Shown one piece after another: positions 5,391-53,100 of a DNA stretch of 64,000 nucleotides (its first letter is position 1; each line of letters begins with the position of its first letter). The notes beneath the pieces are model-generated. The model had not been told where the DNA came from. It saw only the letters and a list, made by a program, of their open reading frames with translations, and made no database searches. Origin of the DNA: an uncultured Bacteroidota bacterium. Lineage in GTDB: Bacteria > Bacteroidota > Bacteroidia > Bacteroidales > P3. Made by a program: the position numbers and the translations under genes. The DNA lies in NCBI GenBank assembly GCA_902771735.1, contig CACXXO010000001.1:186001-250000 (forward strand), in the 5' to 3' direction.

Positions 5391-5480
5391 CCATACCAAC
5401 TCCCTACCAACTCCTACCGTGGTAGGAGTTGGTAGGGAGTTGGTAGGTGATTGATAGGTAGTTAGCACTTAGTCTATCGG
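5391..5480. repeat. Palindromic intergenic repeat, copy A
   Basis: Two perfect 24-bp arms (5395-5418 and 5421-5444) flank a central GT. The arms are built from ACCAACTCCCT-type words. A tail TTGATAGGTAGTTAGCACTTAG follows in part (5451-5472) and resembles the tails of copies B and G. This is the main content of the 244-bp spacer between the ZIP and glmM genes; the rest (5481-5608) is AT-rich, with a weak hairpin (ATCGG/CCGAT) followed by six T. Confidence 0.9.
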
Positions 5481-5608
5481 AGGCGGTTTTTAGGTGTTTT
5501 CAGGCCGATTTTTTAACATTTCGAAGGCAATAAAAGGGGCAAAAAGACGTTATGCTAAAGTTAAAATTAAGTTAAATAAAAAAGAACACAATATAAAAAG
5601 CGCGTACT

Positions 5609-7000
5609 ATGAGCCTTATCAAATCCATTTCCGGCATCCGCGGCACAATCGGCGGACCGGCAGGCGAAGGCCTGACCCCCCTTGACGTTGTGAAATTCAC
5701 TTCCGCATTCGCCACCTTCCTGAAAAACAGTCATTCCGGCCGTCGGCTGCGTTTGGCCGTGGGGCGCGACGCCCGTCTGAGCGGCGCCATGGTCGACCGC
5801 CTTGTCGTCGGCACACTTCAGGGCATGGGTGTGGACGTCCTCGAGACCGGCCTCAGCACCACCCCGACCACCGAGATGACCGTTATCGACGGCCATTGCG
5901 ATGGTGGCATCATCATCACTGCCAGCCACAATCCCAAACACTGGAACGCACTCAAGTTACTGAATTCCAAAGGCGAATTCATCTCCGATGCCGAGGGCAA
6001 GGAGGTGTTGAGACTTGCTGAGAGTCAGGAAATCAACTATGCCGAAGTCGACGACCTGGGTCAGGTGACCGTCGAGGAAGACTGGATTGATCGTCATATC
6101 GAGCGCGTACTTGGACTGAAACTCGTTGACGCTGAGGCCATCCGGAAGGCTGGTTTCAAGGTGGCTGTCGACGCTGTCAACTCCACCGGTGGCCTGGCCA
6201 TTCCACGCCTGCTGCGCAAGCTGGGTGTGAAAGAGGTGGTAGAACTCAACTGCGAGCCCACCGGTCATTTTGCCCACAACCCGGAGCCTATCCCACAGAA
6301 TCTCACACAGATATCCGACTGCGTGCGCGACAACCATTGCGACCTCGGCATCGTGGTCGACCCTGATGTCGACCGTCTGGCACTGGTGTGCGAGACCGGC
6401 GAGATGTTCGGCGAAGAATACACGCTGGTCAGCGTGGCCGACTATGTGCTGCAACACACTCCGGGCAACACCGTGAGCAACCTCTCCTCGTCCAGAGCCT
6501 TGCGCGATGTGACGCGCCGCTATGCCGGTTGCGAGTACAACGCCGCCTCTGTGGGCGAGGTGAATGTCACCACCCTTATGCGCCAGACCAATGCCATCAT
6601 CGGCGGCGAGGGCAACGGAGGTGTCATCTATCCCGAGCTGCACTACGGCCGCGACGCCCTGGTGGGTGTGGCCCTCTTCCTCACCCTTCTGGCCAAGAAA
6701 GGAATGAAGGTGAGCGAATTAAGAAAGACCTATCCCGAATATATCATTTCGAAGAACCGCAAGGACCTGACGCCCGACATGGACGTTGACGCCCTGCTGG
6801 CCAAGGTTGCCAAGCTCTACAACGGCATGGCCGGCGTGGAGAAGGTGACGACCATTGACGGTGTGAAGATTGACTTCGCCGACGGCTGGGTGCACCTGCG
6901 CAAGAGCAACACCGAACCCATCATCCGCATCTACAGCGAAGCCGCCACCGAGGCCCGCGCCAACGAGTTGGCCAAAGGCGTTATGGCACAGATTGGGTAA
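5609..7000 (+). CDS. glmM: Phosphoglucosamine mutase / phosphohexomutase
   Basis: At 463 residues this is the length of Bacteroidota alpha-D-phosphohexomutases. The phosphoserine loop is TASHNPKHWNALK (Ser106), the metal-binding loop is DPDVDR (Asp251, 253, 255), the sugar-binding loop is GGEGNGGVIYPELHYGRD, and the phosphate-binding loop near the end is RKSNTEPIIRIYSEA. GlmM converts glucosamine-6-phosphate to glucosamine-1-phosphate for UDP-GlcNAc, feeding peptidoglycan and lipid A (lpxB is in this window). The metal loop is usually DGDADR, and this DPDVDR form is common in the phylum. Phosphomannomutase activity cannot be excluded. It stands alone and ends in a strong terminator. Confidence 0.9.
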   Translation: MSLIKSISGIRGTIGGPAGEGLTPLDVVKFTSAFATFLKNSHSGRRLRLAVGRDARLSGAMVDRLVVGTLQGMGVDVLETGLSTTPTTEMTVIDGHCDGGIIITASHNPKHWNALKLLNSKGEFISDAEGKEVLRLAESQEINYAEVDDLGQVTVEEDWIDRHIERVLGLKLVDAEAIRKAGFKVAVDAVNSTGGLAIPRLLRKLGVKEVVELNCEPTGHFAHNPEPIPQNLTQISDCVRDNHCDLGIVVDPDVDRLALVCETGEMFGEEYTLVSVADYVLQHTPGNTVSNLSSSRALRDVTRRYAGCEYNAASVGEVNVTTLMRQTNAIIGGEGNGGVIYPELHYGRDALVGVALFLTLLAKKGMKVSELRKTYPEYIISKNRKDLTPDMDVDALLAKVAKLYNGMAGVEKVTTIDGVKIDFADGWVHLRKSNTEPIIRIYSEAATEARANELAKGVMAQIG

Positions 7001-7023
7001 AGACTACTGGTTATAAAAAAAAA

Positions 7024-7050
7024 GCCCCGCCATCTGGCGGGGCTTTTTTT
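7024..7050. terminator. Bidirectional intrinsic terminator after glmM
   Basis: An 8-bp GC stem (GCCCCGCC/GGCGGGGC, loop ATCT, 7024-7043) has an A-run before it and a T-run after it. It can end both the rightward glmM and the leftward pspC transcripts. Confidence 0.93.
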
Positions 7051-7053
7051 CAA

Positions 7054-7263
7054 TTATCGTTCACTACGGCTGTCTTCCGGGGCGGCAATCCAAACAATGA
7101 GGTAGGCCCAGAAGCCAAATCCACCGAAAAGGAGGGCAAGGAGGAAGATGATGCGGACGACCGTAGGATCAATGTTGAGGTAGTTGGCAATGCCTCCGCA
7201 AACACCTGCAATCCGGCGGTCGGTGGAGCTGCGCATGAGACGACGATAACTATTGTTTTCCAT
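7054..7263 (-). CDS. PspC-domain membrane protein
   Basis: This 69-residue protein is a bare PspC domain: RRLMRSSTDRRIAGVCGG near the start, IANYLNIDPTVVRIIFLL, then one hydrophobic segment (about 40-62). PspC domains belong to membrane-stress modules related to the phage-shock response. No PspA is nearby. It follows the M3 peptidase gene by 12 bp on the same strand and probably shares its transcript, ending at the shared terminator. Confidence 0.9.
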   Translation of the reverse strand: MENNSYRRLMRSSTDRRIAGVCGGIANYLNIDPTVVRIIFLLALLFGGFGFWAYLIVWIAAPEDSRSER

Positions 7264-7275
7264 GATAATGAGAAA

Positions 7276-9312
7276 TTAAAGCATTCCTTTTCGTTTGAGA
7301 AGAGCTTTGGGGCTGGGGTCCTTGCCACGGAAAGCACGATAGAGGTCCATAGGCTCCACCGTGTTGCCACTCTCGAGGAGGTGGCGGAACTTGGCGGCCA
7401 GGTCGGGGTTGAAGAGGTCACCGCTCTCGGCAAAGGCCTCGAAGGCGTCGGCGTCGAGGATGGCGGTCCAGGTGTAGCTGTAGTAGCCGGCATCATAGCC
7501 CGTGGTGAAGATATGTTGGAAATAGGGCGAGCGATAGCGGCTGATAATCTCGGGGATAAGGCCAATCTTGTTCATAGCCAGTTCTTCGAACTGCAGCGGG
7601 TCGATGGCCTGTTTCTCGCGGATGGAGTAGTAGTCCATGTCGAGCAGCGAGGCGGCGAGCAGCTCGGTGGTCATGAATCCCTGTCCATAGGTGGCAGCAG
7701 ACTCGATTTTCTTGATGAGCTCATCCGGAATAGCCTCACCGGTCTGATAATGATGGGCATACATCTTCATCACCTGGGGGTGACGGCACCAGTTTTCCAT
7801 GACCTGCGAAGGGAGTTCGACAAAGTCGCGTGGCACGTTGGTACCGGCCAGCGAAGGATAGGTGCACTTGGAAAGCAGGCCGTGGAGGGCATGGCCAAAC
7901 TCGTGGAAGAGGGTCTCGCTCTCGTCGAAGTTGAGTAGCGAGGGCTTATCGGCCGTGGGTTTGGTGAAGTTGCAGACCACTTGGATAATGGGAATGACAT
8001 TTTCACCCTCGAGGGTGCGGTGTTGGCCGCGGAACTCGGTCATCCAGGCGCCGCTGCGCTTCGAGGCGCGGGGATGGAAGTCCATGTAGAGGATGCCGAT
8101 GACCTGGTCTCCATCCTTGACTTCGAAGCAACGTGCCTCTTTGTCGTATGTAGGCAGGTCGGTGCGCTCGGTGAAGGTCAGCCCATAGAGCTTGTTGGCC
8201 ACCATGAAAGCACCGGCGCGAACGCTGTCGAGGCTGAAATAGGGGCGCACCTCGGCATCGTCGAGAGCATATTTCTCCTTACGGAGTTTCTCGCTATAGT
8301 AACGCCAATCCCACGGCTGCAGCTTGGCACCGGGCTCGTCTTTTTCGAGCATCTTCTGGTAGAGGTCGCGTTCCTGCTTGGCCACCTTGAGGGCGGGTTT
8401 CCAGATGTCGAGGAGGCATTTGTAAACATTAGCCGGCGTCTTGGCGAGGCAGTCGTCGAGGACCCAGTCGGCATGGGTGGGGAAGCCGAGGATGTTGGCG
8501 CGCTCGAGGCGGAGGTTGACGAGGGTGTCGATAATCTTGGTGTTGTCGAATTCACCCTCCTTACATCTGTCGGTGAAGGCGTGCCAGACCTCCTCGCGGA
8601 GCTTGCGGTCGGCGCAGGTCTGCATGAAAGGCTCCCAGGTGGGCATATCGAGGGTCACCTTGCTACCGTCGGGCAGTTCCTTGCTGTAGGCGTTGGTGGC
8701 TTTCAACACGTTCTGTGCGAAGCGCATGGTGAGCGAGGCAATCTGTTCGTTGAGCTGACGGAAGCGTTCCTGCTGGTCGGCAGGGACATTGGCGCCGCCG
8801 CGGACAAAACCCTTGTAGGTCTCCTCGAGCAGGCGCATCTGCTCGGGATTGAGGCCGAGGTTGTCGCGCTGGTCGTAGACGGCCTTGATGCGCTGGAAGA
8901 GTTTGGCGTTGAGGGCAATGTCGTCGCCATGAGCAGCGAGCAACGGAGTCACCTCTTCTTCAATGGCTTCCATTTCAGGGCTGTTCTCACATTCGGAGAG
9001 ATTGAAGAAAACTCTGCTTACCTCACCGAGAAGTTGACCGCTGTACTCATAAGGGAGAATGGTATTCTCGAAAGTAGGAGCCTCGGGGTTATTGACAATA
9101 GAGTCGATTTCGGCTTTCTGACGGGCCATGCCCTCACGGAATGCCGGCATGTAGTGTTCGGTCTTGATACGCGAGAAATCGGGAATCTCATACGGAGTGT
9201 TCCACGCCGAGAAGAAGGGATTTTCCATAGGCTGGGAGTCTTTGTTTTTGCATCCGGCGAGTATCAACAGGGCCAGTGCGGGAATTAAAAATGAACGTTT
9301 TTTCATTGACAT
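7276..9312 (-). CDS. M3-family peptidase, peptidyl-dipeptidase Dcp-like lipoprotein
   Basis: This 678-residue protein starts with a lipoprotein signal (SFLIPALALLILAGC, Cys near 21), so it should be anchored in the envelope. The zinc site HEFGHALHG lies near residue 470 with a downstream conserved segment (NVPRDFVELPSQVMENW). The length and the final GYDAGYYSYTWTAILDADAF block match the Dcp/oligopeptidase A group, which trims dipeptides or cleaves short peptides. The start could be the ATG at 9312 or the one at 9306 (MKKRSF), which makes little difference. PspC follows. Confidence 0.92.
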   Translation of the reverse strand: MSMKKRSFLIPALALLILAGCKNKDSQPMENPFFSAWNTPYEIPDFSRIKTEHYMPAFREGMARQKAEIDSIVNNPEAPTFENTILPYEYSGQLLGEVSRVFFNLSECENSPEMEAIEEEVTPLLAAHGDDIALNAKLFQRIKAVYDQRDNLGLNPEQMRLLEETYKGFVRGGANVPADQQERFRQLNEQIASLTMRFAQNVLKATNAYSKELPDGSKVTLDMPTWEPFMQTCADRKLREEVWHAFTDRCKEGEFDNTKIIDTLVNLRLERANILGFPTHADWVLDDCLAKTPANVYKCLLDIWKPALKVAKQERDLYQKMLEKDEPGAKLQPWDWRYYSEKLRKEKYALDDAEVRPYFSLDSVRAGAFMVANKLYGLTFTERTDLPTYDKEARCFEVKDGDQVIGILYMDFHPRASKRSGAWMTEFRGQHRTLEGENVIPIIQVVCNFTKPTADKPSLLNFDESETLFHEFGHALHGLLSKCTYPSLAGTNVPRDFVELPSQVMENWCRHPQVMKMYAHHYQTGEAIPDELIKKIESAATYGQGFMTTELLAASLLDMDYYSIREKQAIDPLQFEELAMNKIGLIPEIISRYRSPYFQHIFTTGYDAGYYSYTWTAILDADAFEAFAESGDLFNPDLAAKFRHLLESGNTVEPMDLYRAFRGKDPSPKALLKRKGML

Positions 9313-9333
9313 ATTTTTTTATTTATTCACATT

Positions 9334-10743
9334 TTACTTCATCAAAGCTTGAAAAATAGTCTCCAAAATGTCGGCACTGAGTTTCTTGGCCACAAACTTG
9401 TGGTCACTGTTGTCAATGAGGTAGATTTGGGGAGTGGTGGTAACATCGTAGACTTCGCGCCAGTCGACATTTGCCTCACTACCATTGAGGTGGACCCAGC
9501 GAGGATCGGTCATCTGATGGTCGGAAAGGAATTTTTTCCACTTTTCGATGGTTTGGTCGTCGGGTTCAGTGAGTATGGCGAAAGCACTGACATCCAAAGA
9601 ATCTGCATATTTCTCGTAGACCTTGTAGACCGCAGGGATGACGTCGCGGCAATGGCCGCAGGTGGGGCTCCAGAAAAGGAGTAACGTGTAACGGCCAGGC
9701 ATATGGTGGAGAGAATAGGCGCGATGGACTGTATCGAAAAGAATGAGCTCGGGCGAGACGCGTCCCACCAGCAAGCGTTCCCATTTGTTGGCACGTTCAA
9801 TCTGTTCGTCGATAGTAGAAGGTTCAAGCCCCTGCACCTTGCCCGTGGAGAAATAGCGCTGCACGAGATGGACATAGACTTCGTCGTAGACCATGACATG
9901 GCTTTGGAGATAGTGTTGCGTAAGATTGAGAATCAGCCATCTGTAAACTCGTGGAGCCGGTTCGGCACGATCGATGAGACTATCGAGCAAGGGGCAAATG
10001 ACCTCGGGTGGCATACGGTTCAACAGGCGATCGAGATACTCCATCACGCGGTCATAGAAGACCGTCTTAGGAGTGCGGAGGATGAAGTTGTCATCGAGCG
10101 GCATATTGTCGAAGAAATGAATCTGCAGCCATTCAAAGCGTTCGCGGTCGGTCATTTTGGTGCCGTCAGCGTGCAGCTTGGGAACATCCACATCCTTGGT
10201 GGACAGCATCATACGGGAAAGCATACAGTCAGGATACTGGGCGATGAAAGAGAGTCTGATACTGTCGAGGCGCAAACGTTGGGAGGGCAAGAAGACTGTA
10301 TTGAATTCTACGGAGTCCATCGTCTTTTTGGCGATATCAAACTCCTGATAGAACACTTCATTGGCTCGATTGAAATTGAAGAAAATTTCATTTTCCCGCG
10401 AACCTTTGGCGGTCATGCCCAATTTCCAGTTATCGTTGTCGGTACTAATGGTAAAACGCTGTTTTTCATTGTAAACAATAAACTCTGCAAAGCGGTCCTT
10501 GTTGTTAGTTATATAGTAAAGACCCGGATCGAGTTCCTGGTCACCTTCGAAGACAAACTTGCCCTTGCCGTTGTTGAAAGCCGTGTCGCAGATATATTTG
10601 TATTGTGCAAGATAAAAACCCATGTAAAGCACCGAATCTTTACTATTTTCGGCAATGAAAGTAATCTTATAGCTGCTCTTGGCGGCAAAAGAAGTTACCG
10701 CAACGGCGAACAGGATGAGTAGGATAGAAATTGTACGTTTCAT
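9334..10743 (-). CDS. Exported thioredoxin-like protein (TlpA type, DUF5106-like)
   Basis: This 469-residue protein has a signal peptide (MKRTISILLILFAVAVTSFA). It has an N-terminal beta-rich region resembling DUF4369 (about 25-120), a helical DUF5106-like middle and a C-terminal thioredoxin fold with the active site FWSPTCGHCRDVIP (CGHC near residue 361). Proteins of this layout are very common in Bacteroidales and are thought to reduce or shuffle disulfides in the periplasm. Domain names come from memory of the family layout. It lies 21 bp upstream of the M3 peptidase on the same strand. Confidence 0.85.
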   Translation of the reverse strand: MKRTISILLILFAVAVTSFAAKSSYKITFIAENSKDSVLYMGFYLAQYKYICDTAFNNGKGKFVFEGDQELDPGLYYITNNKDRFAEFIVYNEKQRFTISTDNDNWKLGMTAKGSRENEIFFNFNRANEVFYQEFDIAKKTMDSVEFNTVFLPSQRLRLDSIRLSFIAQYPDCMLSRMMLSTKDVDVPKLHADGTKMTDRERFEWLQIHFFDNMPLDDNFILRTPKTVFYDRVMEYLDRLLNRMPPEVICPLLDSLIDRAEPAPRVYRWLILNLTQHYLQSHVMVYDEVYVHLVQRYFSTGKVQGLEPSTIDEQIERANKWERLLVGRVSPELILFDTVHRAYSLHHMPGRYTLLLFWSPTCGHCRDVIPAVYKVYEKYADSLDVSAFAILTEPDDQTIEKWKKFLSDHQMTDPRWVHLNGSEANVDWREVYDVTTTPQIYLIDNSDHKFVAKKLSADILETIFQALMK

Positions 10744-10818
10744 TTTTCTTTACAATTATCGTTATTTACTATATAGAGTTCAAATAGTCGTTTTTGGCTC
10801 ACATATTAACATTTATTT

Positions 10819-12123
10819 TTATTTCCCGATGCAAAAACGGCCAAAGATGTTGCCCAGAATATCATCTGAGGTCACCTCGCCGGTGATGGTGCCAAGGTGG
10901 TAAAGAGCATCGCGCAAGTCGACAGCGACAAGGTCGGCCGGAAGGCCACCCTCGATTCCCTGTTCAACCGCATCCAGAGCTCGACTGACACTCTTCAGCG
11001 CCTCATAATGGCGAGCGTTGGACAAGAGAATGTCCCCTGACGAATTGTTGCCCACATGAGCATGGAATTGATTGAGAATTTCTTTTTTAAGTTCATTCAA
11101 GCCAAAGCCTGTCTTTGTGGAGACGAGCAATCTCCCATCCCTATCGGGATTCTCAAGAAGATCGGCTTTAGTGTAAACCATAATGACCGCTTTACCCTCG
11201 AGGTCTATCTCGGGCTCTGCCCAAGGTTTGGTAACATCATTCAGATAAAGAACAATATCTGCTTGAGAAACTGCCTTCCGGCTACGTTCCATTCCAAGAT
11301 GTTCCACATGGTCGGTACTATGACGCAAACCAGCGGTATCGATAAAGCGGAAAGAGATGCCACCGAAAGTAAGCGTTTCCTCAATAGTGTCGCGAGTGGT
11401 ACCAGGGATATCACTGACTATGGCGCGGTCATCATCGAGTAAAGCATTGAGCAAGGAAGACTTACCCACATTGGGTTGTCCCACTATAGCCACAGGGACA
11501 CCTCGACGAAGCGCGTTTCCAAGACGGAATGAGTCAAGAAGGGCTGTGATTTGAGAATCAAGAATGGCGAGGAGTTGGCGCAGTTGGGTACGGTCGGCAA
11601 ACTCCACATCCTCCTGAGAAAAATCCAATTCCAACTCAAGCAGACTGGTAAGATCAAGCAGTTGTTGCCGCAGAATCTTGAGTTTCTGCGCATAACCGCC
11701 ACGCAGCTGACTGACTGCCAGGCGATGCTGGGCGGGAGTGACAGAGTCGATAAGGTCGGCTACAGCCTCGGCCTGCGAAAGGTCGAGACGACCGTTGAGA
11801 AATGCCCTTTGAGTGAACTCGCCAGCTTCGGCCATACGTGCACCGTCATCGATAAGCGACTGCAACAAAGCCTGTTGCACATAATACGATCCATGGCACG
11901 AAATCTCTATTGTCGGTTCACCGGTGTATCCCTTGGGATAATAGACAGCCACCACATCGTCCAACTCGTCGAAACGGCAATAAGTGGCACGACGAGATTC
12001 AAGAGAGGAGACCGAAAGATGACGCAATGCGACAGGCAACGCATCGTCACCCGAGAGTCGAGCCACGGCGATGCCGCCCACCCCACGAGGGGTGGAAATA
12101 GCCACTATAGTATCATGCTTCAT
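10819..12123 (-). CDS. mnmE: tRNA uridine-5-carboxymethylaminomethyl modification GTPase MnmE
   Basis: At 434 residues the layout is complete: folate-binding N-domain (TIVAISTPRGVGGIAVARLS), G1 motif GQPNVGKSS (215-223), switch region DIPGTTRDT, G3 DTAGLR, and the invariant C-terminal CIGK whose Cys is needed for modification of wobble uridine. With MnmG it makes the xm5U34 modification in tRNAs. Its start overlaps the upstream membrane-protein gene by 11 bp. The G4 motif reads YTKAD, as expected for NKxD-like sites in some homologues. Confidence 0.96.
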   Translation of the reverse strand: MKHDTIVAISTPRGVGGIAVARLSGDDALPVALRHLSVSSLESRRATYCRFDELDDVVAVYYPKGYTGEPTIEISCHGSYYVQQALLQSLIDDGARMAEAGEFTQRAFLNGRLDLSQAEAVADLIDSVTPAQHRLAVSQLRGGYAQKLKILRQQLLDLTSLLELELDFSQEDVEFADRTQLRQLLAILDSQITALLDSFRLGNALRRGVPVAIVGQPNVGKSSLLNALLDDDRAIVSDIPGTTRDTIEETLTFGGISFRFIDTAGLRHSTDHVEHLGMERSRKAVSQADIVLYLNDVTKPWAEPEIDLEGKAVIMVYTKADLLENPDRDGRLLVSTKTGFGLNELKKEILNQFHAHVGNNSSGDILLSNARHYEALKSVSRALDAVEQGIEGGLPADLVAVDLRDALYHLGTITGEVTSDDILGNIFGRFCIGK

Positions 12124-12613
12124 CCTTGGAATCTACAACATAGCGGTCTCCATAGAGCATCTTCATCTCTTCGTCAGAGAGCCCCAAATCCACTTTCACT
12201 TTATAGATATTCGGATAGGCCAGAAAAAGGGTCAACACAATGACCATGGCCAACATCAGAAGTACATTTTGGTTAGAGACGAGCATCATGAGACAAAGCA
12301 CTATCACCACTGCAAAGATCGACAAGAAAAGAGATCGGATATGTGCAGCATAGCCCGTGAGTTTTGCCCCTAACGTCTCAGACTGTCGCAAACGTGGCAT
12401 CTGCTTACGAATAACCAAGAGTGCCATGCTCAGAGACAACACCGCCAAAACACTGCCTGCAATGAGCATCCATCGGTTGACATAATCAGTCTGTTGCGGG
12501 AACCGCCATGGACTGGCATAGAGGAACAATCCTGCTACAATGACAACTCCCACAGATCCCCAAAGTCCAATCTGGGAAGTGCGTTTTATGGTTTTAATTT
12601 CTTTCTCGAACAT
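12113..12613 (-). CDS. Membrane protein of unknown function
   Basis: This 166-residue protein has four hydrophobic segments in two pairs (about 18-36, 47-66, 94-112, 117-133) and an acidic, charged C-terminus (LSDEEMKMLYGDRYVVDSKDEA). I do not recognise a named family; similar proteins sit between uvrA and other genes in Bacteroidales. It starts 3 bp after the uvrA stop region and overlaps mnmE by 11 bp, so it is an internal member of the porX-to-mnmE gene run. Confidence 0.75.
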   Translation of the reverse strand: MFEKEIKTIKRTSQIGLWGSVGVVIVAGLFLYASPWRFPQQTDYVNRWMLIAGSVLAVLSLSMALLVIRKQMPRLRQSETLGAKLTGYAAHIRSLFLSIFAVVIVLCLMMLVSNQNVLLMLAMVIVLTLFLAYPNIYKVKVDLGLSDEEMKMLYGDRYVVDSKDEA

Positions 12614-12616
12614 AGA

Positions 12617-15382: not shown

Positions 15383-15383
15383 C

Positions 15384-16868: not shown

Positions 16869-16883
16869 ATTATTATCCTTCGT

Positions 16884-18431: not shown

Positions 18432-18513
18432 ATAGTTATCCTTATATAATTTTTACAATAACGTATCTATTATAAAAAAATTGTATCCCCCAACAACAAA
18501 ATAAATCCGAAAG

Positions 18514-18608
18514 ACCTACCACAACCCTACCAACCCCCTACCAACTCCTACCGCGGTAGGAGTTGATTAGGAGTTGGTAGGGAGTTGATAACTGGTTTAT
18601 AGGTACTT
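18514..18608. repeat. Palindromic intergenic repeat, copy B
   Basis: The core palindrome is 18542-18565 (CAACTCCTACC, centre GC, then its complement). It is flanked by more CCTACCAAC words on the left, and on the right by a duplicated GGAGTTGGTAGG word and the tail TTGATAACTGGTTTATAGGT. The porX-mfd intergenic region (18432-18894, divergent genes) holds this element, two hairpins and the mfd promoter. I see no gene in it. Confidence 0.88.
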
Positions 18609-18622
18609 AGCCCCAATCAGAA

Positions 18623-18645: not shown

Positions 18646-18742
18646 CCAAAAGGTCTTCTTTTATCGTATCCGACTTAATATCAATCCCTTATACAAACCT
18701 CAACAAAACTACAACAAAATACACTCTTCGGTGACACATTTT

Positions 18743-25430: not shown

Positions 25431-25510
25431 CTCCGTATCATCTCCGACCGTGGTCGGACTTCAGTCGGAGTTGACTCGGACTTCAGTCGGACTTGATACG
25501 GAGTTGATAC
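25431..25510. repeat. Palindromic intergenic repeat, divergent copy C
   Basis: This copy keeps the layout but with different words. The core is CCGACC, centre GT, GGTCGG, and the outer arms are CTCCGTATCA (25431-25440) and its complement (25494-25503), with GTCGGA/AGTCGG words between. The left flank CTCCGTATCATCTCC is shared with copy E, which ties it to the family. The 306-bp purA-tkt spacer contains this copy, a terminator and the purA promoter. Confidence 0.75.
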
Positions 25511-25536
25511 TAAGAATCAGCCTGTTAGAAACAACG

Positions 25537-30568: not shown

Positions 30569-30640
30569 ACTACCTATCAAATACCTACCAACTCCCTACC
30601 AACTCCTACCTTAGTGGGAGATGACAGGTTGTTCATATCT
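30569..30640. repeat. Palindromic intergenic repeat, decayed copy D
   Basis: The left arm is intact (CTACCAACTCCCTACCAACT followed by CCTACC). The centre TTA and the right arm GTGGGAGATGACAGG are degenerate, so the hairpin is broken. The 439-bp spacer between the BspA-like gene and yidC holds this copy and the yidC promoter, and no convincing gene. Confidence 0.75.
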
Positions 30641-36615: not shown

Positions 36616-36659
36616 AAAACCAAGGCCTCCAGTCATACGATTGGAGGCCTTGGTTTTTT
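36616..36659 (+). terminator. Strong intrinsic terminator after the lipoprotein gene
   Basis: A perfect 16-bp stem (AAAACCAAGGCCTCCA with its complement, loop of 10 nt) ends in a T-run and lies 17 bp after the stop. Confidence 0.92.
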
Positions 36660-36681: not shown

Positions 36682-36766
36682 CTCCGTATCATCTCCCTAC
36701 CAACTCCTACCCAAGTCCCTACCAACTCCTACCATGGTAGGAGTTGGTAGGGTGATGGTAGGGAGA
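36682..36766. repeat. Palindromic intergenic repeat, copy E
   Basis: Perfect 17-bp arms (36717-36733 and 36736-36752) flank a central AT. The left flank ACTCCGTATCATCTCC is shared with copy C, and an additional CCCTACCAACTCCTACC word lies just before the core. It lies between convergent genes, bracketed by two terminators. Confidence 0.88.
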
Positions 36767-40678: not shown

Positions 40679-40693
40679 CGTTTTTCGGTTTGT

Positions 40694-41032: not shown

Positions 41033-41045
41033 AACATTCCTTTCT

Positions 41046-41774: not shown

Positions 41775-41808
41775 AACACTTTACTTCTTAATCTTCATAA
41801 CTTCTAAA

Positions 41809-42627: not shown

Positions 42628-42629
42628 TG

Positions 42630-42662
42630 TTGGTTTAAGGTTTAATGTTTAAGGTTTATGGG
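42630..42662. repeat. AT-rich iterated words between the two permease genes
   Basis: The spacer is made of GGTTTAAGGTTTAATGTTT-type units in tandem. It is one of several AT-rich iterated spacers in the window. Confidence 0.6.
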
Positions 42663-42663
42663 T

Positions 42664-43368: not shown

Positions 43369-43387
43369 CAGTACTGTTTTTATTATA

Positions 43388-44215: not shown

Positions 44216-44220
44216 AGCTT

Positions 44221-44535
44221 TCAGTTTTTGTATTTGATTGCAGTACCGTAAACCAGCACCTCGGCGGCCTGCGCCATGATGGCGCTGGTGGTGTAGCGCA
44301 CGCCGATGATGGCGTCGGCGCCGAGCTTCACGGCTTGGTCGACCATGCGCTGGGTGGCATGGGCGCGGGCTTTCTCCATCATGCCGGTGTAGCTCTTGAG
44401 CTCACCGCCGACGATGCTTTTCAGCCCCTGGCCGAAGTCGGCAAACATGTTCTTGCTCTGGATGGTGCTGCCTTCGACAACACCGAGCACCTCGAAATTC
44501 ATACCCGGAAGGGTTTCAATGGTGACAAGTTTCAT
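44221..44535 (-). CDS. YbjQ/UPF0145 family protein
   Basis: From the ATG at 44535 the 104-residue product starts MKLVTIETLPGMNFEVLGVV. The family pattern follows (ARAHATQRMVDQAVKLGADA, IIGVRYTTSAIM, VLVYGTAIK). YbjQ proteins form pentamers and have been linked to heavy-metal or envelope stress, without a proven activity. A longer start to 44610 is rejected because it runs into AT-rich spacer and the end of the upstream gene. The gap to the ABC ATPase is 5 bp. Confidence 0.9.
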   Translation of the reverse strand: MKLVTIETLPGMNFEVLGVVEGSTIQSKNMFADFGQGLKSIVGGELKSYTGMMEKARAHATQRMVDQAVKLGADAIIGVRYTTSAIMAQAAEVLVYGTAIKYKN

Positions 44536-44575
44536 AGCATTATTTTTTTTAATTTTTAATATCTCATTTTTCATT

Positions 44576-47002: not shown

Positions 47003-47024
47003 CGTTGTCTGTATTATTATATTA

Positions 47025-47237
47025 TTACTTATTTTCTTTATTGGCGGCAGCCAAAGCTTCCATGAGCCACCACAAACCCGCGAAGACCACACCGTGGACC
47101 AATCCGTTCACGATGGCAAACTTCACCGTGTGCCCTTCGATGAAGAGCGACGACAGAAAGAAGGCCACCGAGAGCAACCCGAAGATCGTCAGAGCGAACA
47201 CCCAATCTTTTTTCTTCAAATGTTCCTTGTAGGTCAT
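47025..47237 (-). CDS. Small two-helix membrane protein, first gene of the ABC operon
   Basis: This 70-residue protein (MTYKEHLKKKDWVFALTIFG onward) has two hydrophobic segments (about 13-33 and 38-60) and a charged tail. The reading frame directly follows the operator-bearing promoter. Family not recognised; a DUF-type small inner-membrane protein. It precedes the outer-membrane barrel gene by 22 bp. Confidence 0.72.
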   Translation of the reverse strand: MTYKEHLKKKDWVFALTIFGLLSVAFFLSSLFIEGHTVKFAIVNGLVHGVVFAGLWWLMEALAAANKENK

Positions 47238-47285
47238 AAAGGTCTATCTATTTGTTTTTCAATTGATAATTCACTTTTAATACTG

Positions 47286-47307
47286 GTGTATTAGTTAACT
47301 AATACAC
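47286..47307. promoter_or_regulatory. Perfect 22-bp palindromic operator, predicted GntR/YtrA site
   Basis: The half-site GTGTATTAGTT is followed directly by its exact complement. It begins 2 bp after the -7 box of the leftward promoter, so it covers the predicted transcription start, a classic repressor position. The YtrA-type regulator encoded in the operon (40694-41032) is the obvious candidate ligand; this is inference. Confidence 0.75.
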
Positions 47308-47309
47308 TG

Positions 47310-47341
47310 CAAATGTAGTACAATTTTTTATACTGACCAAA
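47310..47341 (-). promoter_or_regulatory. Promoter of the ABC/outer-membrane operon
   Basis: The minus strand has TTTG (47338-47341) and TACATTTG (47310-47317), 20 nt apart, directly upstream of the palindromic operator. The leader to the ATG at 47237 is about 65 nt. Confidence 0.78.
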
Positions 47342-47419
47342 TTTTTTTTCAAAAATTTTTCATTTTTTTCTCAATCAACACAACAATCAATTGATAATGA
47401 ATAGCATAAACAACGTACC

Positions 47420-47505
47420 AAATACTTACCATCTCCCTACCAACACCCTACCAACTCCTACCGTGGTAGGAGTTGGTAGGGTGTTGGTAGGGTATTCGTA
47501 GGTCG
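47420..47505. repeat. Palindromic intergenic repeat, copy F
   Basis: This is the longest perfect copy, with 28-bp arms (47436-47463 and 47466-47493) around a central GT. Where copies A and G have CCAACTCCCT, this one has CCAACACCCT, and the opposite arm carries the matching change. It is in the 502-bp spacer between divergent genes (47238-47739). That spacer also holds the operator and promoter above and two further hairpins, with no gene that I can see. Confidence 0.92.
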
Positions 47506-47549
47506 TTTATCCGACTTTGGCACCAATTTTGTAGCAAAAAAAAAATCGA

Positions 47550-47595
47550 CCTCCCTCCAAACGCTATTCTTCAGCGTTGAGGGAGGACGTTTTTT
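47550..47595 (+). terminator. Terminator-like hairpin downstream of repeat F
   Basis: A stem of CCTCCCTC with GAGGGAGG is extended by AACGCT/AGCGTT, then six T (47590-47595). An A-run also precedes it, so it could work both ways. No annotated gene ends here. Confidence 0.6.
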
Positions 47596-47633
47596 GGAGG
47601 GAAGAAGGATGCCGATTATCAGACAACCTGGAT

Positions 47634-47650
47634 GCGGGCGAAACGCCCGC
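47634..47650. repeat. Short GC hairpin and AT palindrome upstream of the Wzz-like gene
   Basis: GCGGGCG-AAA-CGCCCGC forms a 7-bp hairpin. A perfect 18-bp AT palindrome (TTATTGTAT and its complement) follows at 47671-47688, about 50 bp before the Wzz-like gene. They may be regulatory for the polysaccharide genes; nothing else supports this. Confidence 0.5.
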
Positions 47651-47739
47651 GGTTCGAAGGTTACATTTTTTTATTGTATATACAATAATATATATGTGCG
47701 AGCGTTATACATAGAAATTATTCTTTAATATACATACTT

Positions 47740-48603
47740 ATGCAAGAAGAAAGCAAAGGATTGGGAAACAACTATAACATGGATATGTCGCGCCGCTTTT
47801 TCCGTCGCTGGTGGAAGGTGCTGGTGGCGGCATTCGTGGTGGGAGCCATAGCCTCGGGCATAGCGGCATGGCTCATCAAACCGCTCTACAAGTCGTCGGC
47901 GGTCATCTTCCCCACCAACTCGAACCGCCTTTCGAAGGCCATCATGGACTACCACTACAGTCTCGACTTCATGGACTACGGCATCGAGCGCGACTGCGAA
48001 TACGCCATCCAGATTCTCAGCTCGAAACGCATGCAACAGGCTGTCTGCGAACACTTCAACCTGCTGGAGCACTATGGCATTCCCGCCGACCATCCGCACC
48101 GCCTGTTCAAACTCGAGGAACAGTACAAGAGCAACATCACGGTGAAACGCACCGAGTTCCTCGGAGTGGAAATAGGCGTTTTGGACCAGGATCCGCAGTG
48201 GGCTGCCGACATTGCCAACTATATCGCCTCGATGTACGACACACTGTGCCACGAGATCCATCACGACCGCGCCCTTTCGGCCGCCGAGGTGATGGACGGC
48301 GTATGTGCCTCGATGGAGAAAGAAATTGACTCTCTCTCGAATCTGCCCGCCACAGCCTGGCGCACCAAGCTCATCGCCGACAAGTGCGAGCAGCTGGCCG
48401 ACCTGCAGACCCGCGCCACACAGACCCGCGTGGACAAGAACCTGGAAGTGAGCTACAAATACAGTGTCGACCCCGCCATCGTGGCCGACAAGAAAGCCTA
48501 TCCCAAGCGCCTGCTCATCATCCTCGGAGGCAGCCTCGGCGCCGTGGTGGTGTGCATCTTCACGCTGCTGATTTTCTGCCCCGCCAAGAAAGACGACGAA
48601 TAA
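47740..48603 (+). CDS. Wzz-like polysaccharide chain-length/co-polymerase protein
   Basis: This 287-residue protein has two membrane segments (about 25-45 and 257-280) flanking a periplasmic helical domain, the layout of Wzz/PCP proteins. The N-terminal region RRFFRRWWKVLVAAFVVGAI and the following YKSSAVIFPTNSN fit the family's first domain. There is no tyrosine kinase part. It is followed without a gap by an O-antigen ligase/polymerase-like gene, so the two form a unit for making or exporting a surface polysaccharide. Confidence 0.8.
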   Translation: MQEESKGLGNNYNMDMSRRFFRRWWKVLVAAFVVGAIASGIAAWLIKPLYKSSAVIFPTNSNRLSKAIMDYHYSLDFMDYGIERDCEYAIQILSSKRMQQAVCEHFNLLEHYGIPADHPHRLFKLEEQYKSNITVKRTEFLGVEIGVLDQDPQWAADIANYIASMYDTLCHEIHHDRALSAAEVMDGVCASMEKEIDSLSNLPATAWRTKLIADKCEQLADLQTRATQTRVDKNLEVSYKYSVDPAIVADKKAYPKRLLIILGGSLGAVVVCIFTLLIFCPAKKDDE

Positions 48604-50064
48604 GTGGTTTGGATCAAGAAACATTGGGGATTGCTGGTGGCCGCAGTGCTGACCTTGGCGTTTGTCGTCGCCGAGGGTTATGTGTTGTGGTACAAGGGCG
48701 ACGCCACCATAGGGCTTGTTCCGCTGGGGCTACTGGTGATATGGCTCTTTGTGACACGCCTCGAGACAGGCTTCCTCCTGATGACCTTCCTCACCCCCTT
48801 CGCCATCAACATCGCGCTGCTACCTGGCATGGAGCTCTCGATGCCTGTGGAGCCAATGATGATACTCTTCTCGGGCATCTTCTTCTTCCGCCTGCTGGCC
48901 ACACGGAGCTATGACCCACGGCTGGTGCGCCACCCCGTAACACTGCTGCTGCTGGCCTCGCTGGCGTGGATGCTATTTACCTCGGTGACCTCCGAGATGC
49001 CATGGGTGTCAATCAAATACACTTTGGCAAGAGTATGGTTTGTCACGCCGTTTTTCTTCGCCGCAGCCCATTTCTTCCGGCAACAGAAGCGCATACACCA
49101 ATTCTTCTGGGCCTATGCCATCGGTCTCGGTGTCGTCATCCTTATCGCCACATCGAAAACCCTCGGCAACTTCAGCGACCTGCAGACCCTCCACCGGGTG
49201 ATGCGTCCCTTCTACAACGACCATACGGCCTACGGCTGCGTCATAGCGCTGCTGCTGCCGGCGGCATTCTATTTCATCTTCTCGCACAGCATGAAAGGAT
49301 GGCGGCGAGTGCTGTCGCTGGTGCTCTTCGCCGGACTGTGCACCGGACTGTTTTTCAGCTACTGCCGTGCAGCATGGATCAGCGTGGTGGGTGCCATCGG
49401 CGTCTATGTTCTCATTCGAATGGGAATGAAAGTCAAATGGATGGTGCTCCTGTTCGGCCTTGGTGTGGGAGCCTTTTTCGTCTATCAGAGCGACGTGCTG
49501 TACAAACTCGGCAAAAACAATCAAGATTCGAGCTATACGCTGGCCGACCATGTGAAAAGCATCTCCAACATCTCGACCGACGCGTCGAACCTCGAGCGTC
49601 TGAACCGCTGGGCCTCAGCCTTCCGCATGTGGAAAGAGAGCCCCGTGCTGGGTTGTGGACCAGGCACTTACCAGTTCCTTTATGCCAGCTATCAGCGTTC
49701 CTACCAACTCTCAACCATCAGCACCAATGCCGGCGATTTGGGCAATGCCCACAGTGAATACATCGGACCTATGACCGAGCAGGGCGTGCCGGGAGTGGCA
49801 CTGGTGGCACTGCTCTTCCTCACCACTTTCGCCACCGGCGTGCGTATCTACCGCACAGCAAAAGACCCCCATACTGCACGCATGGCGTTAGCCTTTACAC
49901 TCTCATTGCTAACCTATTATATCCACGGAGTGTTCAACAACTTCCTCGATACCGACAAACTCTCGGTACCTTTCTGGGGCTTCACGGCAGTCATTGTGTC
50001 CCTCGACGTCTACAGCCATTCAAGGGCTGGCTCCCAATCGGAGAATGACAGATTACCGCAGTAG
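48604..50064 (+). CDS. O-antigen ligase/polymerase family protein (Wzy/WaaL-like)
   Basis: This 486-residue protein has about 12 hydrophobic segments and a large periplasmic loop near 300-400 containing GCGPGTYQFLYASYQRSYQL and NAHSEYIGPMTEQGVPG, the His-containing motif of the Wzy_C/O-antigen ligase family. The start is a GTG (48604) directly after the TAA of the Wzz-like gene; the next ATG is beyond two helices, so the GTG is required. It would polymerise or ligate a polysaccharide. No glycosyltransferases are nearby, so the pathway is only partly encoded here. Confidence 0.85.
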   Translation: MVWIKKHWGLLVAAVLTLAFVVAEGYVLWYKGDATIGLVPLGLLVIWLFVTRLETGFLLMTFLTPFAINIALLPGMELSMPVEPMMILFSGIFFFRLLATRSYDPRLVRHPVTLLLLASLAWMLFTSVTSEMPWVSIKYTLARVWFVTPFFFAAAHFFRQQKRIHQFFWAYAIGLGVVILIATSKTLGNFSDLQTLHRVMRPFYNDHTAYGCVIALLLPAAFYFIFSHSMKGWRRVLSLVLFAGLCTGLFFSYCRAAWISVVGAIGVYVLIRMGMKVKWMVLLFGLGVGAFFVYQSDVLYKLGKNNQDSSYTLADHVKSISNISTDASNLERLNRWASAFRMWKESPVLGCGPGTYQFLYASYQRSYQLSTISTNAGDLGNAHSEYIGPMTEQGVPGVALVALLFLTTFATGVRIYRTAKDPHTARMALAFTLSLLTYYIHGVFNNFLDTDKLSVPFWGFTAVIVSLDVYSHSRAGSQSENDRLPQ

Positions 50065-50111
50065 CCAACGCGGCAAAATTTCACGAAAAAATTCAAGTAC
50101 TTAAGAATGTT

Positions 50112-51893
50112 TTATTCGTCGCTTGTAGCTGAAATAAAGCGGCGGTAAGCGGAGAAGGTGTTGGCGCGGGAGATGAAGCCAAGATAGCGGTTGTCGTCGT
50201 CGATGACCACAAGGTTATAGCGGTCGCCGATGCGGAATTTTTCGACCACGTCGGTCAAAGAGTCGGACGAACGGACAATATCACCCTCACTCATGGGGTG
50301 CATCAAATCGTCAACAATCACACTATCATATAAATCCGGACGGAAAATAATTTTGCGGACATCGTCGAGTGCCACGATGCCGGCAAACTTGTCATCGTCG
50401 GTGAGCACCGGGAAAAGATTGCGCCTCGAGGTTTGGATAACTTCCACCAGGTCACGCAGACTTCCACCACTGCGGACAATGACAAAGTTGGTCTCGATGA
50501 GACTCTGCATGTCCATCAAATGCCAAGCCGAAGCATCCTTGTCATGTGTCAGCAGGTCGCCTTTCTTGGCAAGCTTGCGAGCATAGATGGAATGACGTTC
50601 GAATGGGCTGACACACAAGTAAGTAACAGCCGAAGCTACCATCAAGGGGACCAACAGCTGGTAGCCGCCAGTGATGTCGGCAATGAGGAAAGTGGCCATG
50701 AATGGAGCATGCATCACACCTGTCATGACAGCCGCCATGCCGACAAGGGCGAAATTAGCCGTATCCTGCTGAGGCAGGCCCATCTGATTGCAAGCCATAG
50801 CCACAAAATAACCGGAGAGACCACCCACGATGAGCGAGGGGCCGAAGGTGCCGCCCACACCGCCACTACCGATGGTGGACGCTGTAGCCACAGCCTTGAG
50901 GAGAATCAGTAAAAAAAGCACCAAAAGGACGGCCCAGGACTCACTTCCAAATGAACCATATATGGTATTGACAAACAGACTACTGGAGTCGCCGTGAAGC
51001 AATTGGGTGAGCATACCATATCCTTCACCGTAGAGCGGCGGGAAGAGGAAGATAAGCACACCGAGCAACAATCCGCCCACACCCACACGAAGCCACGGAT
51101 TGGTGAACTTGGCGAAGAGTCCTTCCACCTTGTCGGTGGTCCGAAGGAAATAGACCGATACCAATGCACAGAAAACGCCAAGAATCACATAGAACGGCAG
51201 TTGAGAGAGGCCAAACTGCTGAGTAACCTCAAAATGGAACTGCACGTCGGCGCCCATGAAGAAGTAGGCCACCGTTGCCGACACCAGGGCCGCGATGAGC
51301 AGCGGCAGGGCCGTTGTTGCGCTGAGGTCGAACATAAACACCTCGAGGACAAACATGATACCGGCGAAAGGAGCCTTGAAAATGCCGGCAATGGCACCTG
51401 CGGCACCACAGCCCAAGAGAATGCGTACACTCTTGGAACTCAGCCGAAACCAACGTCCGATATTGGAGCCGATGGCAGATCCGGTGGAGGCTATCGGGGC
51501 CTCAAGTCCCACACTGCCGCCAAAGGCCACCGTGAGCGTCGAGGCAATCAGTGAGGTATACATATTCTTGCTTGGCAGGCGCGAACCTTTGCGGCTGATG
51601 GCCAGCAACACAGAAGGCAGACCGTGTCCAATATTTCCACGTACTATATACTTCACAAACAGTACCGTAAGCAGAATGCCCACCAGAGGAAAAAACAGCA
51701 TCATCACATTGCCGCCGAGGGGGGTCAATGCACCCATGCGTGTCACCGTCAGGCCGGCATAGTGGACCAAGGTCTTCAGCACTACGGCCGCCAATCCCGA
51801 CAGCACACCCACCACCACCGCAAGCAGCAGTACAAAACCGTGCTCACTCAGATGACGCAGACGCCAACGGTAGATTTTGCTATAAAAACTCAT
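50112..51893 (-). CDS. ClC-family chloride channel/transporter with CBS pair
   Basis: This 593-residue protein has a ClC membrane core (about 20-430) and two CBS domains (about 450-590). The pore motif GGSVGLEAP keeps the gating glutamate as Glu131 (Glu148 in E. coli ClC). At the second glutamate position, FVLEVFMFDL has Val185 where proton-coupled exchangers have Glu203, the state found in channel-type members. It is a single gene with its own promoter, divergent from the ompA-like gene. The CBS pair suggests control by nucleotides. Confidence 0.93.
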   Translation of the reverse strand: MSFYSKIYRWRLRHLSEHGFVLLLAVVVGVLSGLAAVVLKTLVHYAGLTVTRMGALTPLGGNVMMLFFPLVGILLTVLFVKYIVRGNIGHGLPSVLLAISRKGSRLPSKNMYTSLIASTLTVAFGGSVGLEAPIASTGSAIGSNIGRWFRLSSKSVRILLGCGAAGAIAGIFKAPFAGIMFVLEVFMFDLSATTALPLLIAALVSATVAYFFMGADVQFHFEVTQQFGLSQLPFYVILGVFCALVSVYFLRTTDKVEGLFAKFTNPWLRVGVGGLLLGVLIFLFPPLYGEGYGMLTQLLHGDSSSLFVNTIYGSFGSESWAVLLVLFLLILLKAVATASTIGSGGVGGTFGPSLIVGGLSGYFVAMACNQMGLPQQDTANFALVGMAAVMTGVMHAPFMATFLIADITGGYQLLVPLMVASAVTYLCVSPFERHSIYARKLAKKGDLLTHDKDASAWHLMDMQSLIETNFVIVRSGGSLRDLVEVIQTSRRNLFPVLTDDDKFAGIVALDDVRKIIFRPDLYDSVIVDDLMHPMSEGDIVRSSDSLTDVVEKFRIGDRYNLVVIDDDNRYLGFISRANTFSAYRRFISATSDE

Positions 51894-51916
51894 CTTTTTT
51901 TCAAAAAATTGAGGTG

Positions 51917-51924
51917 CAAAGATA
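51917..51924 (-). promoter_or_regulatory. Promoter -7 box (TATCTTTG) of the ClC gene
   Basis: The minus strand reads TATCTTTG followed by CACC, 23 nt upstream of the ATG at 51893. Confidence 0.68.
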
Positions 51925-51974
51925 CGAAAAATAATTGAATTGCGTTATTTTAGACAAAAAAAATAACAATTATT

Positions 51975-52991
51975 ATGATAAAAAGAACCCTTTTCTTCGG
52001 CACCCTTGCCATGCTCGCCATGACCTCGTGTGTCTCGCTCAGCGAGCACGAAACCCTGCAAACGAAATACGACCAGACCGCCAAACAGTACAAACTCACA
52101 CGCCAGGAGTTGGACGAAATCAAAGAGGAAAACGCCGCCCTTACACGCCAGAACAATGCTTTGACGAGTGACTACAGCGAACTCTCGGCCTTGAAGAACC
52201 GCTGCGAAATCACCGTCGACAGCCTCACCCTCCGCATCGAGCGCATGCGCCAGCACTACGACACCACCCTCGAGAACTACTCGCAGGACATTGCCGGCAA
52301 AAACCGCGACCTCAAACGCGCCCAAAACCTTCTCACTGCCCGTACCAAAGAGCTGAACGAAAAGGAAGAAGAGTTGCGCCAGAAGGAGGAGCAGTTCACC
52401 CGTCAACAAGAGACCTTCCGCCTGCAACGCAGCGAAATGATAGCCAAGCAGGCCGAACTCGAACAGCAGGAAGCCGCCACACGCGCACAACTCGAAGCCA
52501 AGGAACGCGAACTTGAGAACGTGCGCACCTCGGTCACCAAAGCCCTCACCGGCTTCGCCGACAAAGGATTGAAGGTGGAGACCAAAGATGGCAAAGTCTA
52601 TGTCTCAATGGAGAACAAACTCCTCTTCCCGTCGGCCAGCTGGACCGTATCGAAGGAGGGAGCCAATGCCATCAAGGAACTGGCACGCGTCCTCGAGCAA
52701 GACTCGACGTTGAACATTATGGTTGAGGGACATACAGACAACGACCCCTACCGCGGCAACACTGCCGTGAAGGACAACTGGGACCTCTCCGTGATGCGAG
52801 CCACCGCCATCGTCAAACTGCTCCTGCAGCATGGTCCCGGCATCAACCCTGCCCGCATCGAGGCCTGTGGCCACGGCGAGTTTGCCCCAAAAGCCGACAA
52901 CAGCACCTCCGAGGGAAAAGCCGCCAACCGCCGCACCGAAATCATTCTCACCCCCAACCTCGACAAGCTGCTTCAGCAGATGAAGAACTAA
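51975..52991 (+). CDS. OmpA-family lipoprotein with coiled coil
   Basis: This 338-residue protein has a lipoprotein signal (TLFFGTLAMLAMTSC, Cys at 19). A long coiled coil runs over about 25-190 with Gln/Glu-rich heptads. A C-terminal OmpA peptidoglycan-binding domain follows at about 205-330 (LNIMVEGHTDNDPYRGNTAV; NWDLSVMRATAIVKLLL; ARIEACGHGEFAPK; NRRTEIILTPN). It would bridge the outer membrane to peptidoglycan across the periplasm. It starts divergently from the ClC gene in an 81-bp spacer. Confidence 0.92.
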   Translation: MIKRTLFFGTLAMLAMTSCVSLSEHETLQTKYDQTAKQYKLTRQELDEIKEENAALTRQNNALTSDYSELSALKNRCEITVDSLTLRIERMRQHYDTTLENYSQDIAGKNRDLKRAQNLLTARTKELNEKEEELRQKEEQFTRQQETFRLQRSEMIAKQAELEQQEAATRAQLEAKERELENVRTSVTKALTGFADKGLKVETKDGKVYVSMENKLLFPSASWTVSKEGANAIKELARVLEQDSTLNIMVEGHTDNDPYRGNTAVKDNWDLSVMRATAIVKLLLQHGPGINPARIEACGHGEFAPKADNSTSEGKAANRRTEIILTPNLDKLLQQMKN

Positions 52992-53000
52992 CCCCTAAGG

Positions 53001-53100
53001 GTCATCAACCTGCCAACTCCCTATCAACTCCCTACCAACTCCTACCGTGGTAGGAGTTGGTAGGGAGTTGGTAAGGTTTTGATAACTGGTTATCACTTAG
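53001..53100. repeat. Palindromic intergenic repeat, copy G
   Basis: Perfect 22-bp arms (53025-53046 and 53049-53070) flank a central GT. The tail TTGATAACTGGTTATCACTT is close to that of copy B. A short CACT/AGTG hairpin with six T follows. It is the main content of the spacer between the ompA-like and M28-like genes. Confidence 0.9.

What the first reader, a model, noticed from the sequence alone, without database searches (positions are those of the whole stretch)
5391..53100. Seven-copy family of long palindromic intergenic repeats (GTAGGAGTTGGTAGG words)
Copies lie at 5391, 18514, 25431, 30569, 36682, 47420 and 53001, all between genes. Each is built from CCTACCAACTCC-type words arranged as arms of 11 to 28 bp around a 2-nt centre (GT, GC or AT). 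Copies B and G share a tail like TTGATAACTGGTTATAGGTA; copies C and E share the left flank CTCCGTATCATCTCC. Seven in 64 kb is high. No transposase is in the window, so copies may be mobilised from elsewhere (REP/RAYT-like) or be generated by replication slippage. I do not know a named family with these words.
Basis: seen in the sequence. Interest (0 to 1): 0.75.

Follow-up and report, generated by a model that had tools for sequence, protein, structure and literature searches.

The report
Intergenic palindromes with private 11-base words
A group of rumen bacteria carries DNA palindromes between its genes, built from an 11-base word repeated forwards and then backwards; of the four words counted across genomes three are almost private to one species and one is shared by several, and the copies appear to spread by a mechanism that is not the known one.

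Summary
The family is real. The window holds seven related loci: five clean palindromes (A, B, E, F, G), one in another word (C), one half-array (D). The 12-base word occurs 206 times in the 2.29 Mb genome (reversed-pattern control 1). Arms are tandem 11-bp units inverted around 0-4 bases. Word-independent scans find 26 arrays of period 11 in stretches of 40 genus genomes (periods 10, 12, 13: 2, 0, 0) and none in 20 stretches of other families. Three relatives' words are near-private: 93 places in one genome (0 in 40 others), 175 (0 in 40), 73 (3 in one other). In relative G011 one ~107-bp palindrome lies between convergent genes whose stop codons are -4 to 15 bp apart in seven relatives, so copies probably insert. 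RAYT mobilisation is not supported: no Y1 gene detected in the window's genome; in relatives 1 of 39 Y1 neighbourhoods has an array within 500 bp. Best reading: REP/MITE-like mobile palindromes of a new architecture, mobiliser unknown, plus unit slippage; function untested. An SbcCD-loss idea is weak.

The parts
5391..5447 (.). Copy A: 25-bp exact arms (5394-5445) around GT; tandem spacer between a ZIP-transporter gene and a phosphoglucosamine-mutase (glmM-type) gene
18514..18611 (.). Copy B: palindrome (12 bp exact, 29 bp at 86%) with tail TTGATAACTGGTTTATAGGTACTTAG; divergent spacer between a PglZ/response-regulator gene and an mfd-like gene
25431..25515 (.). Copy C: 11-bp array in a different word (CGGACTTCAGT / CGGAGTTGATA) around CGACC-GT-GGTCG; tandem spacer
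30569..30612 (+). Copy D: half-element (left arm only); divergent spacer upstream of yidC
   Evidence: orthologous spacers
36682..36766 (.). Copy E: 18-bp exact arms around AT, duplicated left arm, outer unit shared with C; convergent spacer next to a terminator-like hairpin (36616-36657)
47415..47503 (.). Copy F: 28-bp exact arms around GT; ACACCC/GGGTGT variant in both arms; divergent spacer
53001..53098 (.). Copy G: 22-bp exact arms around GT, tail shared with B; tandem spacer after an OmpA-family gene

Best explanation
A class of small non-coding mobile palindromes. Each element is two inverted arms of two to five tandem 11-bp units around a 0-4 base centre, about 55-130 bp long. SHOWN here: the exact 11-bp period; near-private words in three relatives; one word at many unrelated spacers of a genome; arrays absent from the same addresses in some relatives; a change of unit number by 22 bp in one spacer; in relative G011 a recurrent edge motif on one side only. 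INFERRED: whole palindromes are copied and inserted into spacers by a trans-acting activity that is not a RAYT (enzyme unknown), a different word family spreading in different lineages; copies then gain or lose units by slippage and decay, the outer parts most. The hairpin or cruciform is probably the form recognised. An effect on the host, such as supercoil relief between divergent promoters or insulation of transcription units, is possible but untested.
For: 206 exact words in the own genome, control 1. Near-private words among 41 genus genomes: 93 places in G011, 0 in 40 others; 175 in G028, 0 in 40; 73 in G022, 3 in G008, 0 in 39. Probable insertion: the G011 palindrome in L245 fills a 123-bp spacer between convergent genes; of 11 relatives in which both genes are adjacent, seven have the stop codons -4 to 15 bp apart. 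Directional edges: of 21 G011 copies 14 have both edges intact, and 13 of these carry ATGT[AG] at exactly one edge. Dispersal beyond the array: window copy B and a copy at another locus of L009/L010 share 139 bp at 87-88% identity, including a terminator-like hairpin. Period: 26 arrays at lag 11, 2/0/0 at lags 10/12/13. Occupancy varies: 4 of 15 relatives have an array after the copy-G gene.
Against: No mobilising enzyme was found and no systematic search for an autonomous partner element was made. No target-site duplication was established. No within-species comparison was possible, so insertion is read between species (left gene 68-80% DNA identity; right gene only 36-44% protein identity to G011, though it is similarly divergent, 36-89%, over all pairs); no exact empty site at base level was seen. 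In the same comparison G002 and G021 have 40 and 87 bp and no array, G001 has 261 bp with an array of its own, G030 overlaps by 34 bp, and in 12 of 23 fetched relatives the right-hand gene was not found there. Correlation of the two arms within copies is weak (permutations as low: 1111 of 20000 for G011, 835 of 20000 for the own genome). Fewer than half of the period-11 arrays contain a palindrome by my test (11 of 26 and 21 of 54). The own-genome stretches were chosen on the word.
Confidence: 0.6

Rival explanations
1. Classical REP sequences mobilised by a RAYT (Y1 tyrosine transposase).
For: Intergenic, palindromic, many copies, GTAG inside every unit of the own word; Y1 genes in 28 of 41 genus genomes. 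PMC3733652 (passages) notes that some RAYT genes are flanked by long inverted repeats rather than REPs, and that CGTC REPs lack a dedicated transposase.
Against: No Y1 match in the own genome (MAG, 95.9% complete) or in word-rich G028; 1 of 39 Y1 neighbourhoods has a period-11 array within 500 bp, whereas short GC-rich palindromes average 3.4 there (about 1 kb) against 0.47 per kb elsewhere (palindrome patterns chosen).
Confidence: 0.1
2. Addresses kept by selection: arrays are binding or insulator sites at transcription-unit borders whose sequence is replaced by ectopic gene conversion.
For: The yidC upstream spacer holds an array in 17 of 30 species (YidC identity at least 65%) against 11 of 75 other spacers of 150-900 bp (p = 4e-5), mostly in different words. 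In the yidC loci 29 of 144 divergent or convergent spacers against 11 of 251 tandem ones have arrays.
Against: The address was picked because the window has a copy there, species are not independent (L009 and L010 are nearly identical there), and the yidC spacer itself inflates the divergent class. In the 40 stretches not chosen on arrays the bias is not significant (12 of 62 against 9 of 93, p = 0.10). Occupancy is patchy. A tolerant spacer would look the same.
Confidence: 0.2
3. Purely local origin by slippage and hairpin template switching, without dispersal.
For: Exact two-unit indel between orthologous spacers; some variants present in both arms; 7-, 8- and 9-bp arrays also occur in these genomes.
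Against: The same word at many unrelated loci of one genome and almost nowhere else; shared edges.
Confidence: 0.05
4. Ordinary intrinsic terminators, or a DNA-uptake word.
For: Intergenic hairpins, some beside terminator-like hairpins; a short, abundant, lineage-limited word.
Against: No T-run directly follows the window palindromes (read), and copies B, D and F lie between divergent genes. The word comes in tandem and inverted clusters; 5 of 50 clusters fell inside ORFs of a naive caller, one of them a real palindrome under a doubtful ORF. Uptake-word dialects are recalled from memory.
Confidence: 0.03

Closest known systems
REP sequences / GTAG and CGTC palindromes with or without RAYT (PMC3733652, abstract and passages seen)
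   Same: Extragenic palindromes in high copy, lineage-specific families, thought to be non-autonomous mobile elements; CGTC REPs too lack a dedicated transposase.
   Different: REPs are 20-40 bp, most GTAG-family stems 6-9 bp; here 55-130 bp, arms of tandem 11-bp units, and not associated with the Y1 genes of the genus.
Bacterial MITEs, e.g. BrickBuilt of Porphyromonas gingivalis (PMC4596501, passages seen)
   Same: Intergenic, non-coding, tandem units inside a dispersed element, Bacteroidales host.
   Different: BrickBuilt has 23-nt direct repeats between a leader and a tail with IS-like terminal inverted repeats; here the repeat units themselves form the palindrome, and no IS-like ends were identified.
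Quasi-palindrome and slippage mutation (recalled, not read)
   Same: Would explain unit-number changes and symmetric arms.
   Different: Cannot by itself spread one word to many loci.

Membership tests
REP/RAYT | Repetitive, extragenic, palindromic, high copy | tested here: met
REP/RAYT | Short element, 20-40 bp | tested here: not met
   58-bp exact palindromes in the own genome; 107 bp or more in G011
REP/RAYT | Copies flank a RAYT gene | tested here: not met
   1 of 39 Y1 neighbourhoods tested, of 65 Y1 places listed; no Y1 in the own genome
REP/RAYT | Unpaired GTAG or CGTC tag at one end | tested here: inconclusive
   In the own word GTAG lies inside the paired units; the true element ends are not defined
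MITE | 50-1000 bp, non-coding, many copies | tested here: met
MITE | Terminal inverted repeats matching a resident transposase | not tested
   The whole element is an inverted repeat; no comparison with resident IS elements was made
MITE | Target-site duplication | tested here: inconclusive
   By eye none recurs in the G011 copies; in L245 CCTAC stands on both sides, but on the left it is part of the recurrent edge motif
Intrinsic terminator | GC-rich hairpin directly followed by a T-run | tested here: not met
   Read by eye for the window copies; the terminator scan tool was not run

The most novel reading that the evidence does not exclude
A new kind of bacterial mobile palindrome: long hairpins whose most constant property is an 11-bp period, spread by an unrecognised copy mechanism with one fixed and one variable end, in which different word families sweep the genomes of different species, sometimes re-occupying the same spacers.
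Probability: 0.3. Interest if true: 0.82.

Novelty: new variant of a known kind. Interest (0 to 1): 0.64.

Why it matters
Many dispersed bacterial palindromes are explained by RAYT enzymes. Here is an abundant class, in uncultured rumen bacteria, that keeps an 11-bp geometry while its sequence differs almost completely between species, and that is not linked to the RAYT-like genes present in the genus. It offers a direct test of how long perfect palindromes multiply and are tolerated in bacterial chromosomes.

Tried and rejected
RAYT as mobiliser: not supported. Reverse transcriptase (RVT_1): 15 of 41 genomes match, not the own one; no link seen. Viral vector: 0 matches of the core palindrome in viral contigs (records very near the window's genome may be left out there). 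Rfam: no match at gathering scores in the window. SbcCD loss permitting palindromes: SbcD over the cut-off in 18 of 41 genomes; the own genome has only a weak match (19.5 bits); of 14 control genomes 13 match but only 8 pass the cut-off, so a divergent SbcD is not excluded. In the 40 stretches 18 arrays in 22 SbcD-minus genomes against 8 in 18 SbcD-plus (p = 0.08; long palindromes 5 and 5, p = 0.77). With more loci, partly Y1 neighbourhoods, 35 against 12 arrays (p = 0.046) and 9 against 3 palindromes (p = 0.25), and SbcD-plus G024 carries a palindrome with 55-bp arms. No phylogenetic correction. Not established.

RNA-level pairing: in tandem spacers 10 G-U against 4 A-C mismatches in the sense strand; too few. 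High identity of spacers in L009/L010 and L107/L177 turned out to be part of larger high-identity tracts. A naive longest-ORF caller gave wrong strands and was replaced by a codon-trained one; the lag counts rest on the naive caller. In one search the 'genic' counts of the order-level stretches (21 at every lag) look like an artefact and are not used. One search's filter removed no copy, so its two G011 lines are one test. L250 was missed by my G011 patterns: it holds a copy with one changed base beside the centre and is not among the 21. Literature searches; passages seen of PMC3733652, PMC4596501, PMC12306157; all other papers as listings only.
Full report
OBSERVATION. The seven loci exist. 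The word CCTACCAACTCC (up to one mismatch) is found 22 times in the window against 0.22 expected, and 206 times exactly in the 2.29 Mb genome, where the reversed pattern gives 1. By my count the first 100 places listed there form 49 loci, so about 100 loci genome-wide (extrapolated; a lone word need not be an element). Five window copies are clean palindromes with exact arms of 12-28 bp and fold strongly as single-stranded DNA (z -7.5 to -11.5); C folds less well (-3.5) and D does not (-0.6). C is written in another 11-bp word, D has one arm only.

ANATOMY. The arms are tandem units of 11 bp inverted around a centre of 0-4 bases. I held the window plus 40 stretches chosen on the word (40 of the 43 loci outside the window in the listed 100 places). 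There 28 copies have a CTACC-(0-4)-GGTAG centre; positions 1-5 of the arms are therefore fixed by the way they were picked. Arm mismatch is lower at positions 6-28 (0-39%) than at 29-40 (7-89%), and positions 10, 21, 32 and 16, 27 stand out as nearly free of mismatch, 11 apart. Several variants are present in both arms of a copy, but arm-to-arm correlation is only suggestive by permutation (835 of 20000 as low; for G011 1111 of 20000).

A WORD-INDEPENDENT VIEW. Self-similarity at a fixed lag was scanned in intergenic DNA. One stretch was taken from each of 40 genus genomes, at the best match of the gene left of copy G (38), of the gene right of it (G007) or of glmM (G006): lag 11 gives 26 arrays, lags 10, 12, 13 give 2, 0, 0, and lags 7, 8, 9 give 17, 5, 6. 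In 80 yidC-neighbourhood loci lag 11 gives 54, lags 10, 12, 13 give 2, 7, 1, and lags 7, 8, 9 give 41, 17, 28. In one stretch from each of 20 genomes of other families of the order (422 to 20,000 bases, 272,622 in all) lag 11 gives none (naive gene caller), against about 10 expected from the genus rate (Poisson p = 4e-5). A palindrome lies within 11 of 26 and 21 of 54 of the lag-11 arrays against 27 of 200 random intergenic segments (p = 0.0009 and 0.0001); 7- and 8-bp arrays rarely have one (1 of 17, 2 of 41; 0 of 5, 0 of 17), 9-bp arrays sometimes (0 of 6, 9 of 28).

PRIVATE WORDS. Three words read from relatives and searched through 41 genus genomes are almost private: GGTAGTATTAC doubled, 93 places in G011 and 0 in 40 others; ATTGTTCTTCG doubled, 175 in G028 and 0 in 40; GTTCTTCAGTA doubled, 73 in G022, 3 in G008, 0 in 39. 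The window's own word (single, 12 bases) is shared more widely: 104 places in G021, 37 in G007, 10 or fewer in the other 34 genus genomes of that search. The three words were chosen because they were seen in relatives, so the test shows privacy, not how many genomes have a dominant word.

INSERTION. Of 22 G011 stretches scanned, 21 gave a copy by pattern. In 12 of the 21 both 53-base arms are identical; the other nine differ at 2-16 positions, two of them through one unit fewer in one arm. The stretch missed by the pattern, L250, also holds a copy. The L245 copy fills the 123-bp spacer between two convergent genes. Of 23 relatives fetched, 11 have both genes side by side by protein comparison: seven with the stop codons -4 to 15 bp apart (G000, G008, G009, G014, G022, G024, G035), G030 overlapping by 34 bp, G002 40 bp, G021 87 bp, and G001 261 bp with a period-11 array in another word; in 12 the right-hand gene was not found there. 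The right gene evolves fast (36-89% protein identity over all pairs, 36-44% to G011), the left one more slowly (72-79% to G011). The best reading is insertion into an almost absent spacer, though not at base resolution. Of the 21 copies 14 have both edges intact; 13 of these carry ATGT[AG] just outside GGCGGAGG at exactly one edge, none at both, one at neither; seven copies with a changed edge were left out. So the unit seems to have a direction. No target duplication was established.

GAIN, LOSS AND ADDRESSES. After the gene left of copy G, 4 of 15 relatives have a period-11 array (G021, G011, G015, G009), in different words, and 11 do not. Upstream of glmM, of the 10 relatives printed, four show arrays by eye (G009, G035, G021, G007) and six do not; nine more were on the other strand and not printed. 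Upstream of yidC an array occurs in 17 of 30 species with YidC identity of at least 65%, against 11 of 75 other spacers of 150-900 bp (p = 4e-5); the address was chosen because the window has a copy there. This is either a tolerant address or a selected one. An orthologous spacer of the own genome and G014, about 98% identical around the array, differs by exactly 22 bp, two units.

MOBILISER. Y1 transposase genes are in 28 of 41 genus genomes (65 places) but not in the window's own MAG (95.9% complete). Forty Y1 stretches were fetched and 39 tested (L217, with three Y1 places, was left out): one has a period-11 array within 500 bp, and 12 have one elsewhere in the stretch; short GC-rich palindromes average 3.4 in the flanking 1 kb and 0.47 per kb elsewhere, with patterns chosen. 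So the Y1 genes of this genus appear to have REPs of their own. No enzyme for the arrays was found; 48 of 50 called window genes match no transposase family.

FUNCTION. Untested. Arrays favour divergent and convergent over tandem spacers in the yidC loci (29 of 144 against 11 of 251), where the yidC spacer itself contributes, but not significantly in the 40 stretches (12 of 62 against 9 of 93, p = 0.10). A supercoil-relief or insulating role is a hypothesis.

VERDICT. REP/MITE-like mobile palindromes with an 11-bp architecture for which I found no description, and with near-private words in three relatives. Membership of REP/RAYT fails on two tested features (length, association with RAYT genes). 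'No description' rests in an open-access library only.

Noticed in passing
L009-L088 and L301-L340, intergenic: Tandem arrays of 7-, 8- and 9-bp units are also frequent in these genomes (for example TTAATTC and GACTAGTCG types), while 10-, 12- and 13-bp arrays are rare.
   Followed up: partly
L193-L232: Y1 (RAYT-like) genes in 28 of 41 genus genomes; those read sit among short GC-rich palindromes (CCCCGTAGGGG, CCGTGGGC types), apparently conventional REPs; in G021 and G007 one lies close to glmM.
   Followed up: partly
L245:1341-1431: Another repeated hairpin (CCCCTCTCC...GGAGAGGGG) with many matches across the genus.
   Followed up: no
41 genus genomes: SbcD (TIGR00619) is patchy: over the cut-off in 18 of 41; of 14 control genomes 13 match and 8 pass the cut-off.
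   Followed up: partly
L009:5800-10050 against L010; L107:1-3000 against L177: Tracts of higher identity (mostly 93-100%) beside DNA of about 75-94% suggest recombination between species; in both pairs the tract ends within about 400 bp of an array.
   Followed up: partly
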